Assembly (NCBI GenBank): GCA_004322325.1
Contig: SCTP01000175.1
Coordinates: 1 to 11,188, forward strand
Origin: Gammaproteobacteria bacterium
GTDB taxonomy: Bacteria > Pseudomonadota > Gammaproteobacteria > DSM-16500
DNA length: 11,188 bases
Direction: 5' to 3'
How positions within the stretch are numbered: the stretch's first letter is position 1; each line of letters begins with the position of its first letter. The notes under the pieces are model-generated. The model worked only from the letters and a program-made list of their open reading frames with translations. It was not told the DNA's origin and made no database searches. The position numbers and the translations under genes were made by a program. This document shows positions 2,894 to 8,269 of this stretch, one piece after another.

Positions 2894-3388
2894 TTACATT
2901 TTTAACTGCTTCTGTAATTGCTCCGGGTTATCTTGATCAATGTCAGTTTCGATTCCATTCCATGAAACTGTATTCGCATTATTATCAGGTTTAAACAAAC
3001 TATACCAGGGGAGGTCATCACAAACCCCTTTTAATTTTTCTCGTTTTTGAAGCGATTCTTTATTAGCCCCTTTTAACAAAAGAAATTTCACCGTTTCCAT
3101 ATGACCGTTAACCTCAGCATTCACTAAAGCGGTGGATCCATTCTTGCTTTTTGTATTAAGTAAATCAGGAAATGTTTCGATTAATAGCGTTACGATATTT
3201 AAATGACCATTATAAGCCGCCCAGTGTAATGGATTGCCACCATACTCTACATCTTGAATATCTTCTATTTTACTTATATGAGGTAAAAGTATTTCACATA
3301 ATTTTTTAAATCCTTTTTGAGCAGCTTCCAAAACAACTTCTGCTATATATTGATCTTCTGATTTTTCTACGGGTCTAGTAGTAAACAT
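2894..3388 (-). CDS. Small ankyrin-repeat protein
   Basis: The product has 164 residues, no signal peptide and no membrane segment. It has an N-terminal helical part (residues 1-45) and two clear ankyrin repeats. The first is about 49-81, with the hallmark NPLHWAAYNGHLNIVTLLIE. The second is about 82-112, with STALVNAEVNGHMETVKFLL and LKGANKES. The remaining 50 residues are hydrophilic with no recognised domain. Ankyrin repeats bind proteins and have no catalytic role. In intracellular gammaproteobacteria such proteins are often type IV secreted effectors, but nothing here proves secretion. ATG at 3388-3386 is preceded by AGGGA about 7 nt upstream. The gene is on the opposite strand to all the neighbouring housekeeping genes, is AT-rich, and lies between yggS and proC, which suggests insertion into an older cluster. 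The target is unknown. Confidence 0.8.
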   Translation of the reverse strand: MFTTRPVEKSEDQYIAEVVLEAAQKGFKKLCEILLPHISKIEDIQDVEYGGNPLHWAAYNGHLNIVTLLIETFPDLLNTKSKNGSTALVNAEVNGHMETVKFLLLKGANKESLQKREKLKGVCDDLPWYSLFKPDNNANTVSWNGIETDIDQDNPEQLQKQLKM

Positions 3389-4292: not shown

Positions 4293-4864
4293 TGGCGAAT
4301 ACCATGAATGCTGCATCCTTGTTTCTCATCAATACCTTGTTTGATTTGTATTTGTTTGTTTTAGTCTTACGTATCTTATTGGTATACAGCGGCGTGAATT
4401 ATTTTGACCCTATCACGCAATTTGTCGTCAAGCTAACGGATTTTATCGTCAAACCTTTACGACGCCTCTTACCTACTGTCCGTGGTTTTGAATTAGCCAG
4501 TATTATCTTAGTATTAGTCTTACAAATGATTAAATTTTTACTGGTCTCTCTACTCAGTATGGGCATGCCAGGTATTTTAGGTTTATTGATTTTGGCGATA
4601 GGGGACAGCATTAAAATCGTCTTACTCACTTTTTTCTATGCGATTTTACTGCAAGCCATTCTCAGTTGGGCGCAACCTTACTCCCCTGTCACCCGTACGC
4701 TATACCAAGTCACTTCCCCTATCATGCGACCATTTCAACGTTTGATTCCGCTGATTAATGGTATTGATATTTCACCCATTCCCGCCTTGATTGTATTGCA
4801 GCTACTGATTATTTTGCTGGTGAATCCCATCATGTCATTGGGGCTTGGGATTGCGTTTGGATAA
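4292..4864 (+). CDS. yggT: YggT family integral membrane protein
   Basis: The product is a 190-residue inner-membrane protein made of two tandem YGGT units. The first unit has the amphipathic stretch DPITQFVVKLTDFIVKPLRR (39-58), and the second repeats the pattern as SPVTRTLYQVTSPIMRPFQR (131-150). Each is flanked by hydrophobic segments (about 10-33, 67-89, 95-122 and 162-186). The family's role is unclear; osmotic-stress and division-site functions have been reported for relatives. Length agrees with the gammaproteobacterial two-unit form (about 185-190). AGGAG lies about 10 nt before the ATG, inside the end of proC. The gene ends 4 bases from the convergent antitoxin gene, leaving no room for a separate terminator between them. 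Confidence 0.93.
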   Translation: MANTMNAASLFLINTLFDLYLFVLVLRILLVYSGVNYFDPITQFVVKLTDFIVKPLRRLLPTVRGFELASIILVLVLQMIKFLLVSLLSMGMPGILGLLILAIGDSIKIVLLTFFYAILLQAILSWAQPYSPVTRTLYQVTSPIMRPFQRLIPLINGIDISPIPALIVLQLLIILLVNPIMSLGLGIAFG

Positions 4865-4868
4865 AAAA

Positions 4869-5063
4869 TTATGAAGAGCTCAAACGTAATTCATCTAGTG
4901 CATCTAGCAATTCCTTATAAAACGCTGGAGAAACCACATACGCCGTCGGCCTGTTTCTATTTAAAATAGCGATTGTTTCACCGGCTGCGCGCTCAATAAC
5001 ACCACTGGGATTAGCTTTTAACTCGCTGATGCTTACTGTATATTCAGCTAAAATATGCTCCAT
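4869..5063 (-). CDS. Phd/YefM-family antitoxin, apparently solitary
   Basis: This 64-residue protein has the Phd/YefM (StbD-like) N-terminal DNA-binding fold. YTVSISELKANPSGVIERA (8-26) is followed by ETIAILNRNRPTAYVVSPAFY (29-49) and a short helical tail (LLDALDELRL) that would normally clamp the toxin. Such antitoxins neutralise a RelE/ParE- or Doc-type toxin and repress their own operon as dimers. The usual toxin gene would lie immediately downstream on the minus strand, but that space is occupied by yggT on the other strand and no toxin-like frame is visible there. None is found upstream either, where the metN leader begins. AGAGG about 8 nt before the ATG is a good ribosome site. It may be a relic, a retained antitoxin with a distant partner, or a stand-alone regulator. 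Confidence 0.85.
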   Translation of the reverse strand: MEHILAEYTVSISELKANPSGVIERAAGETIAILNRNRPTAYVVSPAFYKELLDALDELRLSSS

Positions 5064-5069
5064 AAATCT

Positions 5070-5109
5070 GACCTCTTTAAAGACCTATTATATGGACTAA
5101 TTATAGGTC
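5070..5109 (-). promoter_or_regulatory. Operator-like inverted repeat around the antitoxin -10
   Basis: GACCTAT (5082-5088) and ATAGGTC (5103-5109) are an exact 7-bp inverted repeat with 14 bp between. An extra GACCT half-site lies at 5070-5074. Read on the minus strand, a consensus TATAAT (5092-5087) lies at the left arm of the repeat, so a bound repressor would cover the -10. No good -35 is seen at the proper distance. The arrangement matches autoregulation as known for Phd/YefM antitoxins; binding is inferred. Confidence 0.55.
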
Positions 5110-5142
5110 ATATTGAAATAAAAATCAAAATACCCCTTGCGA

Positions 5143-5171
5143 TTGCGCTTAACCCAATTTTTTGCTAGGAT
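5143..5171 (+). promoter_or_regulatory. Promoter of the metN leader (extended -10)
   Basis: TTGCGC (5143-5148) and TAGGAT (5166-5171) are separated by 17 bp, and TG at 5163-5164 makes an extended -10. The predicted start near 5178 puts the riboswitch at the very 5' end of the transcript, as expected for a short leader. Confidence 0.6.
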
Positions 5172-5179
5172 AGTCCTCC

Positions 5180-5232
5180 AGCGCTGATTTGAGCTACAGC
5201 TTGCAAGCGCTATATAAATTTGGCTAAAGCGT
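5180..5232 (+). promoter_or_regulatory. SAM-II riboswitch aptamer upstream of metN
   Basis: The stretch has the ordered conserved blocks of the SAM-II (metA-type) aptamer: GCGCTGATTT (5181-5190), TTGCAAGCGC (5201-5210), ATAAAT (5214-5219) and GCTAAA (5223-5228). Stem P1 is AGCGCT (5180-5185) with AGCGCT (5206-5211). The loop GCTT (5199-5202) can pair with AAGC (5227-5230), giving the H-type pseudoknot that defines the class. SAM-II RNAs bind S-adenosylmethionine and shut off methionine synthesis or uptake genes. The downstream genes here are a methionine transporter, which supports the call. The class is known mostly from Alphaproteobacteria and Bacteroidetes. The match is by eye against remembered family sequence, not a covariance search. 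Confidence 0.88.
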
Positions 5233-5238
5233 GTGAAT

Positions 5239-5272
5239 AAACCACCGATTGCTTTAGCAGGTGGTTTTTTTT
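5239..5272 (+). terminator. Attenuator terminator of the SAM-II leader
   Basis: AAACCACC (5239-5246) and GGTGGTTT (5260-5267) form an 8-bp stem, and the Ts run from 5265 to 5272, giving a standard intrinsic terminator before metN. Its 13-nt loop contains GCTTTAGC (5251-5258), the exact complement of GCTAAAGC (5223-5230) at the 3' end of the aptamer. Pairing those two traps the left terminator arm in a hairpin loop and acts as an antiterminator. SAM binding would hide 5223-5230 and let the terminator form. Confidence 0.85.
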
Positions 5273-5316
5273 CGCCTTTATTTAGCCGTGTATTAACCAG
5301 AAAAAGGCTAATGGCA

Positions 5317-5994
5317 ATGATTGAACTAAGAGCACTTCATAAGAATTATTATGTTAATAAACAACCGCTTCCAGCGCTAAAAAACATCAACTTGACGATT
5401 CGTCGCGGGGAAATTTTCGGTGTCTTAGGCAAAAGTGGCGCGGGCAAATCCACCTTGTTGCGCTGCATTAACCTGCTAGAAAAACCGACCAGCGGGCATG
5501 TGATTGTTAATAACGTAGAATTAACCACCCTTTCTACTAAGCAGCTACGAGAACATCGTCATAAAATTGGCATGATTTTTCAACATTTCAACTTACTCGA
5601 CTCCCGTACCGTTTTCGAGAATGTAGCCTTGCCCTTAGAAATTATCCATCAATCTAAAGCCGCTATTCAGAAAAAAGTTTCCGCTCTATTAGAATTAGTT
5701 GATCTCACTGAAAGACAACATCATTTGCCCTCCCAATTAAGCGGCGGACAAAAACAACGCGTCGCCATTGCCCGTGCACTTGCTGCGGATCCTCATGTGT
5801 TACTTTGTGATGAAGCTACTTCATCACTTGATCCAGAATCCACACAATCTATTCTTAATTTATTAAAAAAAATTAATCGTGAATTTGGCCTGACTATACT
5901 ACTGATCACTCATGAGTTAGACGTCGTAAAACAAATTTGCGATCGTGTTGGCGTGATTGAAGAAGGTCAATTAATCGAGAAAGTGGTGAGGTAA
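5317..5994 (+). CDS. metN: Methionine ABC transporter ATPase, short form without NIL domain
   Basis: MetN is the cytoplasmic ATPase of the MetNIQ importer for methionine. The 225-residue product has Walker [10 protein letters not shown] (38-46), Q-loop IFQHFN (Gln89), signature [15 protein letters not shown] (141-155), Walker B VLLCDEAT (161-168), D-loop SSLD and H-loop His199. [13 protein letters not shown] is typical of MetN. E. coli MetN has 343 residues; here the protein stops right after the ATPase core ([10 protein letters not shown]), so the C-terminal NIL domain that mediates inhibition by internal methionine is absent. ATG 5317 is preferred because AAGG is 9 nt upstream; ATG 5311 would add two residues. 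A GTG at 5233 keeps the frame but lies within the riboswitch platform. The next gene follows after 5 bases, with GAGG at the end of metN as its ribosome site. Confidence 0.92.
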
Positions 5995-5999
5995 TATCT

Positions 6000-7445
6000 A
6001 TGCATAGCGAATTGATCGCCTTATTTAAAGCAACATGGGAAACGATTTATATTGTTTTCTTATCCAGCGTCATCAGTGTCACCATCGGTTCTTGCATCGG
6101 GACACTCTTATTTTTGACGAGAGAAAAACAAGCCTTCGAAAATAAATGGTTTAACCAATCCATTGGCTTCATTGTCAATGCAACACGCTCTATTCCTTTT
6201 ATTATTCTCATGATCAGCATTTTGCCGCTCACACGCTGCATTATGGGCACCACCATTGGCACGAATGCCGCTATTGTACCCCTCTCTCTCGCGGCTATTC
6301 CCTTCTTTGCACGAATCTGTGAAAGTGCTTTTGCAGAAATCCCTTATGCTTTGATTGAAACCGCTCATGCCTTAGGCGTCAGTACCTGGCAATTAATTAG
6401 CAAAATTCTGATTCCTGAAAGTTTACCTTCCCTCATTAGAGGTATCACACTCACCATTATCGGTTTAATCGGTTACTCTGCGATGGCAGGCGCCATTGGT
6501 GGCGGCGGATTAGGTGAATTAGCCATCAACTACGGCTATCAGCGTTTTAATGTGGCAGTGACACTAGAAACTGTCGTGGTATTAATTGTGATCGTGCAAT
6601 CTATTCAACTAGCAGGTGATATATTAGCGAAAAAACGTCAATTTAAACCGATTCTTTTAGCTAGTCTTTTCTTAGGTATTGCCTGCATTGGCAGTCAACT
6701 TTATCCTTTGTTCAATGTACAAGAAAACACACTGAAGATTGGTGTTTCGTCGGGCTGGTCTGAAGAAGTTATGAAAGTCGCACAACAGGTGGCATTAGAA
6801 CAATATCATTTACATCTTGAAATTGTACCCTTTAATGATTATGTGTTACCGAATACGGCGCTAGCAAATGGCAATATCGATGCGAATATTTTTCAGCACA
6901 TCCCTTATTTAGATGCGCAAGTTAAATCGCATGGTTATCCCTTAGTGCCGATCGCTAAAACCTTTGTCTATCCCATGGGATTTTATTCCCGCAAGTTATC
7001 TCATCTTTCCGCCTTAAAAACGGGCGACATCATTGCCCTACCCAATGACCCTAGTAACGAGGCTCGGTCACTCTTGTTGTTACAAAAAGCAGGCTTGATT
7101 ACTTTAAATCCCCGCATCGGCACATTAGCCACTATTAATGACATTGTAGAGAATCCCAAGCACTTGCAATTTAAACTACTCGATGCAGCACAACTACCAC
7201 GTGTATTGCAAGATGCCGCCTTAGTCGCCATTACGAATGATTATGTTGGGCCAGCAGGATTGGATATTCATCAAGCATTATTAAAGGAAGGACCGGATTC
7301 TCTTTATGCCAATGTGATTGTCGTGAGAAAAGCGGATCAACATAATCCTGCCTTTCAACAACTAACCGCCGTGATGCATTCTCGGTCAGTAGTGGAAGAA
7401 ACAAAGAAAATTTTTCCAAATGGAGCAGCCATCGCCGCTTTTTAA
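6000..7445 (+). CDS. Methionine ABC transporter permease fused to substrate-binding protein (MetI-MetQ)
   Basis: This single 481-residue protein joins two MetNIQ subunits. Residues 1-212 are the permease MetI: membrane segments near 15-38, 56-79, 88-106, 147-168 and 188-207, the family stretch RSIPFIILMISILPLTR (63-79), the EAA coupling loop ETAHALGVSTWQLISKILIP (120-139) that contacts MetN, and GYSAMAGAIGGGGLGE (158-173). A sixth hydrophobic segment (216-234) leads to the outside, where residues 245-481 form a MetQ/NlpA-type methionine-binding domain. That domain shows LKIGVSSG, NIDANIFQHIPYLD, ALPNDPSNEARSLLLLQKAGL and GPDSLYANVIVVR. E. coli MetQ is instead a separate lipoprotein. The reading frame is continuous with no sign of a broken junction. 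Topology puts the binding domain in the periplasm, tethered to its permease. With metN it makes a two-gene importer under SAM control. Confidence 0.92.
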   Translation: MHSELIALFKATWETIYIVFLSSVISVTIGSCIGTLLFLTREKQAFENKWFNQSIGFIVNATRSIPFIILMISILPLTRCIMGTTIGTNAAIVPLSLAAIPFFARICESAFAEIPYALIETAHALGVSTWQLISKILIPESLPSLIRGITLTIIGLIGYSAMAGAIGGGGLGELAINYGYQRFNVAVTLETVVVLIVIVQSIQLAGDILAKKRQFKPILLASLFLGIACIGSQLYPLFNVQENTLKIGVSSGWSEEVMKVAQQVALEQYHLHLEIVPFNDYVLPNTALANGNIDANIFQHIPYLDAQVKSHGYPLVPIAKTFVYPMGFYSRKLSHLSALKTGDIIALPNDPSNEARSLLLLQKAGLITLNPRIGTLATINDIVENPKHLQFKLLDAAQLPRVLQDAALVAITNDYVGPAGLDIHQALLKEGPDSLYANVIVVRKADQHNPAFQQLTAVMHSRSVVEETKKIFPNGAAIAAF

Positions 7446-7534: not shown

Positions 7535-8269
7535 ATGGAATCACTCGTTAAAATAATTAGACCAGAAAAGTCTGGATTACGTGAAGTGGAATTGAATGAA
7601 TCTAGCATAGCACTTTATTTTTGTATTCATCCTCACAACCCATCTCTTATGAAAACACCACTTATTAAGACGCCACTTTATAAATATAAATTAACTGATT
7701 TCAGCCTAGAAAAAATTCCAGAAGAAGCAGGCACCCCCTCTTTACAGGAAAAATATAAAGTATCTTTTCCTAAAAATGATAAAACGACGTTAAAAAATGT
7801 AATAGAGTTTATTATTGCTCAATTAAACACGCCTGAACTGATTGACTCTAATACAGCTATCTTAGCTGCTCTGAAAGAAAAGGTAGAAAAGTTAGGCCTG
7901 AGCCTTTGCCACTCTTCGCAAGAACTTTTAACAAGAAAAGCTACTGATTTTACTAAATACCATGATGCTTTAGAAAATTACTTGAATAGCCAGTTAAAAC
8001 GGTTACCTAAAAATTCTGCTCGATACAAGCAATTAAAATTATTTTTAGACGATCTAAAAGAAATCGCTGGCATCAAGCAAATGAAAGACACGGTTAGCGA
8101 ATTAAAAAAAATCACTAAAATACATATTGACACTGGCGTCACAGGTTTTTTCAAGGGAACGTGGGCATTTGACACCAAGCGTCATCGCCATCTCAAGGAA
8201 GTATTTGGTGAAAACAATGAATTACTTTCTAATAACGTAGCAAAGCTTCCTCTTAGAGTAGCGAGATAA
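7535..8269 (+). CDS. Hypothetical protein, AT-rich, family not recognised
   Basis: I do not recognise this 244-residue protein. It has no signal peptide and no membrane segment. It is rich in Lys, Leu and Glu with long predicted helices at about 84-122, 137-156 and 160-195. A more distinctive segment near the C-terminus combines TGVTGFFKGTWAFDTKRHRH (200-219), with Gly, Phe, Trp and basic residues, and is followed by the polar GENNELLSNN. AAGGAG lies 5 nt before the ATG, and a promoter precedes it. Its stop is 6 bases before rdgB, so the two are probably co-transcribed. AT-rich composition and position between otherwise conserved genes suggest an acquired or fast-evolving gene. A secreted effector is one possibility if the organism has a type IVB system, but no decisive signal is visible. 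Confidence 0.75.
   Translation: MESLVKIIRPEKSGLREVELNESSIALYFCIHPHNPSLMKTPLIKTPLYKYKLTDFSLEKIPEEAGTPSLQEKYKVSFPKNDKTTLKNVIEFIIAQLNTPELIDSNTAILAALKEKVEKLGLSLCHSSQELLTRKATDFTKYHDALENYLNSQLKRLPKNSARYKQLKLFLDDLKEIAGIKQMKDTVSELKKITKIHIDTGVTGFFKGTWAFDTKRHRHLKEVFGENNELLSNNVAKLPLRVAR

What the first reader, a model, noticed from the sequence alone, without database searches (positions are those of the whole stretch)
5180..5232. SAM-II riboswitch controlling a methionine importer in a gammaproteobacterial context
The leader reproduces the SAM-II blocks in order (GCGCTGATTT, TTGCAAGCGC, ATAAAT, GCTAAA) with P1 and a possible pseudoknot pairing. SAM-II is established mainly from Alphaproteobacteria and Bacteroidetes, while E. 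coli-type relatives use the MetJ repressor for metNIQ. Finding it here suggests acquired or lineage-specific RNA control of methionine uptake.
Basis: partly seen in the sequence, partly recalled or inferred. Interest (0 to 1): 0.75.

Follow-up and report, generated by a model that had tools for sequence, protein, structure and literature searches.

The report
SAM-sensing RNA switch controlling methionine importer

Summary
The SAM-II blocks are at 5180-5232 as claimed. Rfam RF00521 matches 5171-5244 with 30.6 bits: below its gathering score of 36, yet E = 2e-5, and the next-best place found in the genome has 14.4 bits. Nine genomes of the order carry the aptamer, upstream of metN (5), metE, a metZ-like gene and an unknown gene (2). 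Forty distinct aptamers show paired changes in P1 and P1a; the P2 pseudoknot is nearly invariant. Downstream lies an intrinsic terminator (5239-5272). The P2 strand GCUAAAGC (5223-5230) can instead pair with GCUUUAGC (5251-5258) and block it. Most likely mechanism: SAM locks P2, the terminator forms, metN-metIQ is off. MetJ was found in 0 of 36 genomes of the order. The 'acquired or lineage-specific' reading fails: a model from this clade hits 189 of 369 genomes drawn across the class, MetJ 4 of 369. SAM binding was not tested. Verdict: a genuine new member of a known riboswitch class, under-reported at Rfam's threshold; the importer's MetN also lacks the methionine-sensing NIL domain.

The parts
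5143..5171 (+). possible sigma-70 promoter: -35-like TTGCGC (5143-5148), 17-nt spacer with TG at 5163-5164, -10-like TAGGAT (5166-5171); transcription start would fall a few bases before P1
   Evidence: read by eye; not listed by the consensus scan, so inference only
5180..5232 (+). SAM-II aptamer (P1, loop L1, P1a pair, P2 pseudoknot)
   Evidence: RF00521 30.6 bits at 5171-5244; clade model R1 84.2 bits at 5177-5234, but the window is one of its 9 training rows
5181..5185 (+). P1 5' strand GCGCT
   Evidence: 100% of cells paired over 40 distinct aptamers; two pairs with changes on both sides
5206..5210 (+). P1 3' strand AGCGC
5196..5204 (+). P2 pseudoknot 5' strand (ACAGCTTGC)
   Evidence: 92.1% of cells paired; 4 of 8 pairs never vary, 1 has changes on both sides, 3 depart only by unpaired cells
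5223..5232 (+). P2 pseudoknot 3' strand GCTAAAGCGT; its 5223-5230 is also the 5' half of the antiterminator
5205..5221 (+). P1a pair A5205-U5221 (A-U here, G-C in most relatives)
   Evidence: GC 29, AU 6, GU 1, other 4 among 40 distinct rows; such a pair was predicted in PMC2258182 (passage)
5251..5258 (+). GCTTTAGC, 3' half of the antiterminator, exact complement of 5223-5230; lies in the terminator loop
5239..5272 (+). intrinsic terminator: AAACCACC (5239-5246), loop, GGTGGTTT (5260-5267), U-tract 5265-5272
   Evidence: in the minimum-energy fold, -28.7 kcal/mol; not listed by the consensus scan, whose loop limit is 8 nt (it lists another hairpin at 5259-5277)
5301..5307 (+). likely Shine-Dalgarno AAAAAGG of metN, 9 nt before ATG 5317
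   Evidence: coordinates; role is inference
5317..5994 (+). metN, ATPase of the methionine ABC importer, 225 aa, without the C-terminal NIL (C2) domain. The GTG start at 5233 listed lies within the leader and is unlikely
   Evidence: TIGR02314 MetN is the best NCBIfam match, below its cut-off, on profile positions 1-222 of 343; translation; no PF09383
6000..7445 (+). metI-metQ fusion (permease plus NlpA/MetQ substrate-binding domain), 481 aa
   Evidence: PF00528 at residues 46-210, PF03180 at 245-480; MetI and MetQ models

Best explanation
A SAM-II riboswitch that turns the metN-metIQ operon off at the level of transcription. Step 1: RNA polymerase starts a few bases before P1 (inferred). Step 2: the P1 hairpin folds; if SAM is present it binds between L1 and P2 and locks GCUAAAGC (5223-5230) into the P2 pseudoknot (inferred from family membership). 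Step 3a, SAM high: GCUUUAGC (5251-5258) has no partner, so the 5239-5267 hairpin forms before a U-tract and transcription stops. Step 3b, SAM low: 5223-5230 pairs with 5251-5258 as soon as the latter is transcribed, a few nucleotides before the terminator's 3' arm is complete. The two hairpins should exclude each other, because only one nucleotide joins 5258 to the terminator arm at 5260 and could not cross an 8-bp helix (reasoning from geometry); the importer is then transcribed. The window's MetN lacks the NIL/C2 domain through which E. coli MetNI is inhibited by internal methionine, so the RNA may be this importer's main feedback control (inference).
For: RF00521 match and clear top score in the genome. 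The same aptamer in nine genomes of the order, upstream of five metN genes, one metE, one Cys/Met PLP enzyme (metZ-like) and two copies of an unknown gene. In the 29 top-scoring other genomes of the class, 27 have a Met/SAM-pathway ORF behind the aptamer. Covariation in P1, P1a and one P2 pair beyond shuffled and slid controls. An exact complement of 6 nt or more to the P2 strand within 75 nt downstream in 24 of 40 loci (3.3 expected from shuffles), and a hairpin plus T-tract in 34 of 40 (no control run for the latter). Folding of the growing RNA: antiterminator probability 1.00 at 5259-5262, terminator overtaking it from 5268. MetJ found in 0 of 36 genomes of the order.
Against: The Rfam score stays below the curated cut-off (30.6 versus 36 bits). 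P2 is nearly invariant, so covariation supports it only weakly; in the nine order-level aptamers only one P1 pair covaries and the scores do not exceed shuffles clearly (65 of 500 reach the covariation score). 16 of 40 loci show no complement of 6 nt or more. Among the five metN leaders of the order, only the window and L013 have terminator and 8-nt antiterminator together; L014 has the terminator with an imperfect complement, L010 and L016 have no terminator close by, about 300 nt more before metN, and in L016 the metN frame is split in two. The 40 loci are related, not independent. No promoter passed the scan, and the terminator is not in its list. The fold of the leader is not unusually stable. 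ViennaRNA cannot model the pseudoknot or SAM. Nine metI-metQ relatives (L024, L025, L027-L032, L036) have no confident SAM-II before metN. Nothing here measures SAM binding.
Confidence: 0.88

Rival explanations
1. SAM-II aptamer that acts on translation: P2 formation hides the ribosome-binding site of metN, and the terminator is incidental or only makes a short RNA.
For: Some relatives (L010, L011, L015, L016) lack a terminator close behind the aptamer and have hairpins near the Shine-Dalgarno. In S. meliloti a terminator behind the metA SAM-II aptamer was not predicted to be affected by SAM (PMC9373788, passages).
Against: In the window the likely Shine-Dalgarno (5301-5307) lies about 70 nt beyond P2 and shares no bases with it; the U-tract terminator and its 8-nt antiterminator sit between them and recur in the metN leader L013 and the metE leader L012.
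Confidence: 0.08
2. A related but different sensor: a SAM-V-like or SAM/SAH-type pseudoknot, or a SAM-II relative with a shifted ligand.
For: SAM-V shares the SAM-II core and binding pocket (PMC6061858, passages); the Rfam score is below gathering.
Against: RF00521 is the best of the 9 matches listed and RF01726 (also SAM-II) is another; no SAM-V or SAM/SAH family is among the 9. Target genes are Met/SAM genes in most loci examined. The GATTT and GCTAAA blocks are kept.
Confidence: 0.03
3. Chance resemblance; the leader is an ordinary attenuator or terminator without a ligand.
For: No hit at Rfam gathering threshold; unremarkable fold energy.
Against: E = 4.1e-5 in the genome with a 16-bit gap to the next place; recurrence before different Met genes; covariation.
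Confidence: 0.01

Closest known systems
SAM-II riboswitch (Rfam RF00521, SAM_alpha; PMC1273637)
   Same: P1, L1, P2 pseudoknot, GAUUU, UUGC and GCUAAA blocks, upstream of Met genes, terminator between P2 and the ORF as reported for many members (passages)
   Different: Scores below the Rfam cut-off; controls a methionine importer. Genes that the passages seen name behind SAM-II are metA, metX, metY, metZ, metC, metW, hom and bhmt
SAM-II long loop (Rfam RF01726)
   Same: also matches, 20.6 bits
   Different: fits less well than RF00521 and is far below its gathering score of 44
SAM-V riboswitch
   Same: pseudoknot fold and SAM pocket (PMC6061858, passages)
   Different: SAM-V is translational with a short P2a; here a terminator follows and no SAM-V match is listed
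MetJ repressor control of metNIQ in E. coli (recalled)
   Same: feedback of SAM on methionine uptake
   Different: protein repressor; found in 0 of 36 genomes of this order

Membership tests
SAM-II riboswitch | P1 stem closing the conserved GAUUU...UUGC loop | tested here: met
   5181-5185 with 5206-5210; 100% of cells paired, changes on both sides at two pairs over 40 distinct rows
SAM-II riboswitch | P2 pseudoknot between UUGC region and GCUAAA region | tested here: met
   8 pairs possible in the window, 92.1% of cells paired over 40 rows, little covariation
SAM-II riboswitch | significant covariance-model match | tested here: met
   E = 2e-5 and 4.1e-5 in the genome
SAM-II riboswitch | Rfam gathering threshold reached | tested here: not met
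   30.6 of 36 bits. A curation threshold, not a structural feature: in the class 136 of 369 genomes match at E <= 0.01 and 30 of 369 pass it
SAM-II riboswitch | located before methionine or SAM genes | tested here: met
   window metN-metIQ; 27 of 29 top class loci
SAM-II riboswitch | binds SAM and discriminates against SAH | not testable with these tools
   needs in-line probing or calorimetry
Transcription-terminating riboswitch | intrinsic terminator plus mutually exclusive antiterminator using aptamer bases | tested here: met
   computation only
MetNIQ methionine importer | MetN ATPase, MetI permease, MetQ/NlpA binding domain | tested here: met
   MetN is below the equivalog cut-off, at least partly because it is shortened
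MetNIQ methionine importer | C-terminal NIL/C2 domain on MetN for transinhibition | tested here: not met
   no PF09383 in the window MetN or L022; present in L023 as control

The most novel reading that the evidence does not exclude
SAM-II, not MetJ, is the prevailing sensor of methionine/SAM status across the lineages of the class Gammaproteobacteria (GTDB sense). It has been under-counted, perhaps because Rfam's cut-off suits other members better and because the well-studied gammaproteobacteria are a MetJ-bearing minority. The aptamer is a portable module with interchangeable switches and structural variants (the inserted hairpin in Legionella), and in the window's sub-clade the importer has lost its protein-level feedback domain and relies on the RNA.
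Probability: 0.6. Interest if true: 0.55.

Novelty: new member of a known kind. Interest (0 to 1): 0.4.

Why it matters
The single locus is ordinary for its class. The wider count matters more: if about half of evenly drawn genomes of the class carry SAM-II (189 of 369 at E <= 0.01) and 4 of 369 carry MetJ, the usual picture (MetJ for gammaproteobacteria, SAM-II for alphaproteobacteria) may reflect which species were studied first. A study of about 200 proteobacterial genomes found SAM_alpha only in Rhizobiales and Rhodobacterales (PMC4239095, passage). A better covariance model would annotate regulators that Rfam's threshold leaves out, and unknown genes behind SAM-II could reveal new methionine or SAM functions.

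Tried and rejected
The snR36 match (25.1 bits, gathering 43) and the microRNA and VA matches in L035 were taken as chance, being eukaryotic or viral families below cut-off. Weak RF00521 rows (L017-L021, 18.6-21 bits) were dropped after reading them; in that call, at E <= 0.05, 3 of 14 control genomes also rang, none over the cut-off. Weak R1 rows (22.6 bits or less) were dropped by score alone. L058 (G027, 32.4 bits) was read and left out of the alignment A3: short P1 and no gene recognised behind it. The Legionella leaders were also not given. The GTG start of metN was rejected because it lies in the leader. The unknown protein behind SAM-II in L011 has no Pfam or NCBIfam match at E <= 0.001; the protein search returned one cluster, itself; the family is in 2 of 36 genomes of the order. 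A literature search for a methionine leader peptide before metN listed one paper, a Streptomyces reannotation, not opened. PMC8416018 was opened for metI-metQ fusions; it has no such word. No structure prediction was run, since the question is about RNA.

R1 was trained on nine aptamers of the order, so order-level hits are partly by construction. R1 E-values are rough, off by a factor of about five near E = 0.01, so a few of the 189 may be false. The 29 class loci inspected are one each from the 29 top-scoring genomes other than the own; the other genomes' hits were not inspected. The shuffle control keeps base composition only. The terminator-like count of 34 has no control and includes L010, whose T-tract lies far downstream. 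Counts at E <= 1e-6 were made by eye from the table.

Full report
WHAT IS THERE. The window is one whole contig (G000:C140) of a 2.03-Mb genome in 353 contigs, about 93% complete. By its relatives it is an uncultured gammaproteobacterium: the titled records with the closest metI-metQ genes are gammaproteobacterial, Coxiellaceae and Legionellales assemblies and Legionella species. The leader lies between a divergent small Phd/YefM antitoxin gene (4869-5063, minus strand) and metN (ATG 5317), followed by a metI-metQ fusion at 6000-7445.

IS IT SAM-II? Rfam at gathering thresholds reports nothing. With E-values, RF00521 is the top family: 30.6 bits against a gathering score of 36, E = 2e-5; RF01726, the long-loop version, scores 20.6 bits. 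In the own genome the window has E = 4.1e-5 and the next place 14.4 bits. In the order, 12 of 36 genomes have an RF00521 match at E <= 0.05; nine of these have a match of 26.8-35.5 bits and none of the 36 is over the cut-off. At that loose threshold 3 of 14 control genomes ring as well, none over the cut-off. The nine lie upstream of metN (window, G015, G023, G013, G003), metE (G025), a Cys/Met PLP enzyme, metZ-like (G021), and a gene of unknown function (G007, G020). In G013 and G003 about 300 further bases separate aptamer and metN, and in G003 the metN frame is split. I built a covariance model (R1) with P1 only from these nine. P2 was left out of its structure, so P2 pairing on alignments made with R1 is not imposed by paired positions. 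With R1, 17 of 36 genomes of the order match at E <= 0.05; 11 of them at 32 bits or more, nine being the training rows, the others G032 (metE, 43.8 bits) and G027 (32.4 bits).

COVARIATION. On the nine alone only one P1 pair changes on both sides, and 65 of 500 shuffles reach the covariation score: weak. On 42 aptamers (40 distinct) from 40 loci (window, L009-L016, L042, L057, L072-L100) P1 is paired in all cells with two co-varying pairs. The single P1a pair is G-C in 29, A-U in 6, G-U in 1 and broken in 4. P2 is paired in 92.1% of cells, but 4 of its 8 pairs never vary and 3 depart only by broken cells. The covariation score is 0.140 against 0.073 in shuffles (0 of 500 reach it), and slid structures give 0.064 or less. 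The tool warns that related sequences can exceed shuffles without structure. P1 and P1a are therefore supported by covariation, P2 mainly by conservation.

THE SWITCH. Downstream lie AAACCACC (5239-5246), a loop holding GCTTTAGC (5251-5258), GGTGGTTT (5260-5267) and a T-run (5265-5272). GCTTTAGC is the exact complement of 5223-5230, the 3' strand of P2. Folding prefixes of the RNA gives antiterminator probability 1.00 at lengths ending at 5259 and 5262, 0.94 at 5265, 0.42 against 0.58 for the terminator at 5268 and 0.08 against 0.92 at 5274; at full length the terminator form has -28.7 and the forced antiterminator -24.6 kcal/mol. So without ligand the antiterminator forms first and must be displaced; with SAM its 5' half would be occupied. 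In 24 of 40 loci an exact complement of 6 nt or more to this strand occurs within 75 nt, where shuffles give 3.3; 34 of 40 have a hairpin followed by at least six T within the next 110 nt. Sixteen of 40 lack such a complement, so other designs exist. L011, L015, L010 and L016 look translational: the same strand pairs with a sequence next to a hairpin near the first start codon (inference). The simple scan lists neither the promoter I suggest nor this terminator (loop longer than it allows).

HOW UNUSUAL IS IT? R1 hits 189 of 369 genomes drawn evenly from the class at E <= 0.01, the own genome among them; by my count of that table 167 of 369 are at E <= 1e-6. RF00521 itself hits 136 of 369 at E <= 0.01, with 30 of 369 over its cut-off and 0 of 14 controls. 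MetJ (PF01340) hits 4 of 369, with E. coli as a positive control, and none of those four genomes is among the 189. From the 29 top-scoring genomes other than the own I read one locus each (L072-L100): 27 of 29 have an ORF of the Met/SAM pathway behind the aptamer, namely 15 Cys/Met PLP enzymes, 7 SAM synthetases, 2 methylenetetrahydrofolate reductases, 2 cobalamin-independent methionine synthases and 1 MetN-like ATPase. The other two (L092, L095) have tandem aptamers and an ORF without a Pfam match. The remaining 159 genomes' hits were not inspected.

LITERATURE. Seen as passages found by term search, not whole papers: PMC1273637 (SAM-II in a few other proteobacterial lineages, Coxiella burnetii in a figure legend, terminators common), PMC2258182 (SAM-II in gamma-proteobacteria sporadic, possibly horizontal transfer; [quoted passage not shown] metNIQ of beta-proteobacteria without a known regulator), PMC9373788 (metZ SAM-II predicted to terminate transcription), PMC6061858, PMC5352136, PMC10710835 (C2 domain of MetN and transinhibition) and PMC8416018. 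Searches for SAM-II with Legionella, gammaproteobacteria/metN, SAM riboswitch with Coxiella, SAM-II with distribution/betaproteobacteria, SAM-II riboswitch alone (40 of 82 listed), and SAM-II/SAM_alpha/RF00521 with Legionellales/Gammaproteobacteria/metZ listed no paper whose title or printed abstract start describes SAM-II before metN in this group. The listed papers not named above were not opened, so this is not proof of absence.

THE TRANSPORTER. The window MetN (225 aa) and that of L022 lack the NIL domain (PF09383), while L023, with the same riboswitch, has it. Of 26 loci with a metN-like frame, leaving out L029 (frame broken) and L047 (distant), 24 range from 226 to 345 aa in the frame measured; three are short (L022 226, L026 242, L031 249), and L026 and L031 were not scanned for NIL. 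In E. coli this domain lets internal methionine stop transport (PMC10710835). The own genome has a cobalamin-dependent methionine synthase (PF02965), no match to the cobalamin-independent one (PF01717) and one strong Cys/Met PLP enzyme plus a weak one. No other SAM-II is confident in it (second-best 14.4 bits with RF00521; 19.9 bits with R1), so uptake is probably the only methionine step under this switch here.

VERDICT. Confidence 0.88 for a SAM-II OFF switch by transcription termination, lowered slightly from 0.9 on rechecking because only two of the five metN leaders of the order show the full terminator-antiterminator pair; SAM binding remains inferred.

Noticed in passing
L025:1769-1843 and L028:1766-1852, upstream of metN: Two related assemblies without a SAM-II hit have a short similar ORF (MQLMRSKRMMMLNLDTALWLGLRD and MHIMRLQRMMMLNLGTALWLGLECIVKR) with three consecutive Met codons, followed by an inverted repeat (CCTGGACACTG/CAGTGTCCAGG in L025): a candidate methionine leader-peptide attenuator in place of the riboswitch (no Rfam match at E <= 0.5).
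   Followed up: partly
L033-L035, L037-L041, upstream of metN: Eight Legionella metN leaders carry SAM-II halves with an extra hairpin of 22-72 nt inserted between P1 and the AAA-ACGGCTAAAGCG block; RF00521 is not listed for them at E <= 0.05.
   Followed up: partly
L011:1623-2195 and L015:1617-2258: A protein pair of unknown function (38% identical, no Pfam or NCBIfam match) sits behind a SAM-II aptamer in two genomes; found in 2 of 36 genomes of the order.
   Followed up: partly
L092:1501-1670 and L095:1389-1558 (minus strand): Two SAM-II aptamers in tandem, the first followed by a terminator-like hairpin, before an ORF without a Pfam match.
   Followed up: no
window 5317-5994 and 6000-7445: MetN lacks the NIL domain that senses methionine, and MetI is fused to MetQ.
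   Followed up: partly
window 4869-5063 (minus): Phd/YefM antitoxin gene; no ORF of 20 aa or more next to it in 4800-5330 looks like a partner toxin.
   Followed up: no
window 2894-3388 (minus): Ankyrin-repeat protein of 164 aa, weakly similar to Dot/Icm effector models, far below their cut-offs.
   Followed up: no
window 7535-8269: 244-aa ORF without any Pfam or NCBIfam match at E <= 0.001.
   Followed up: no
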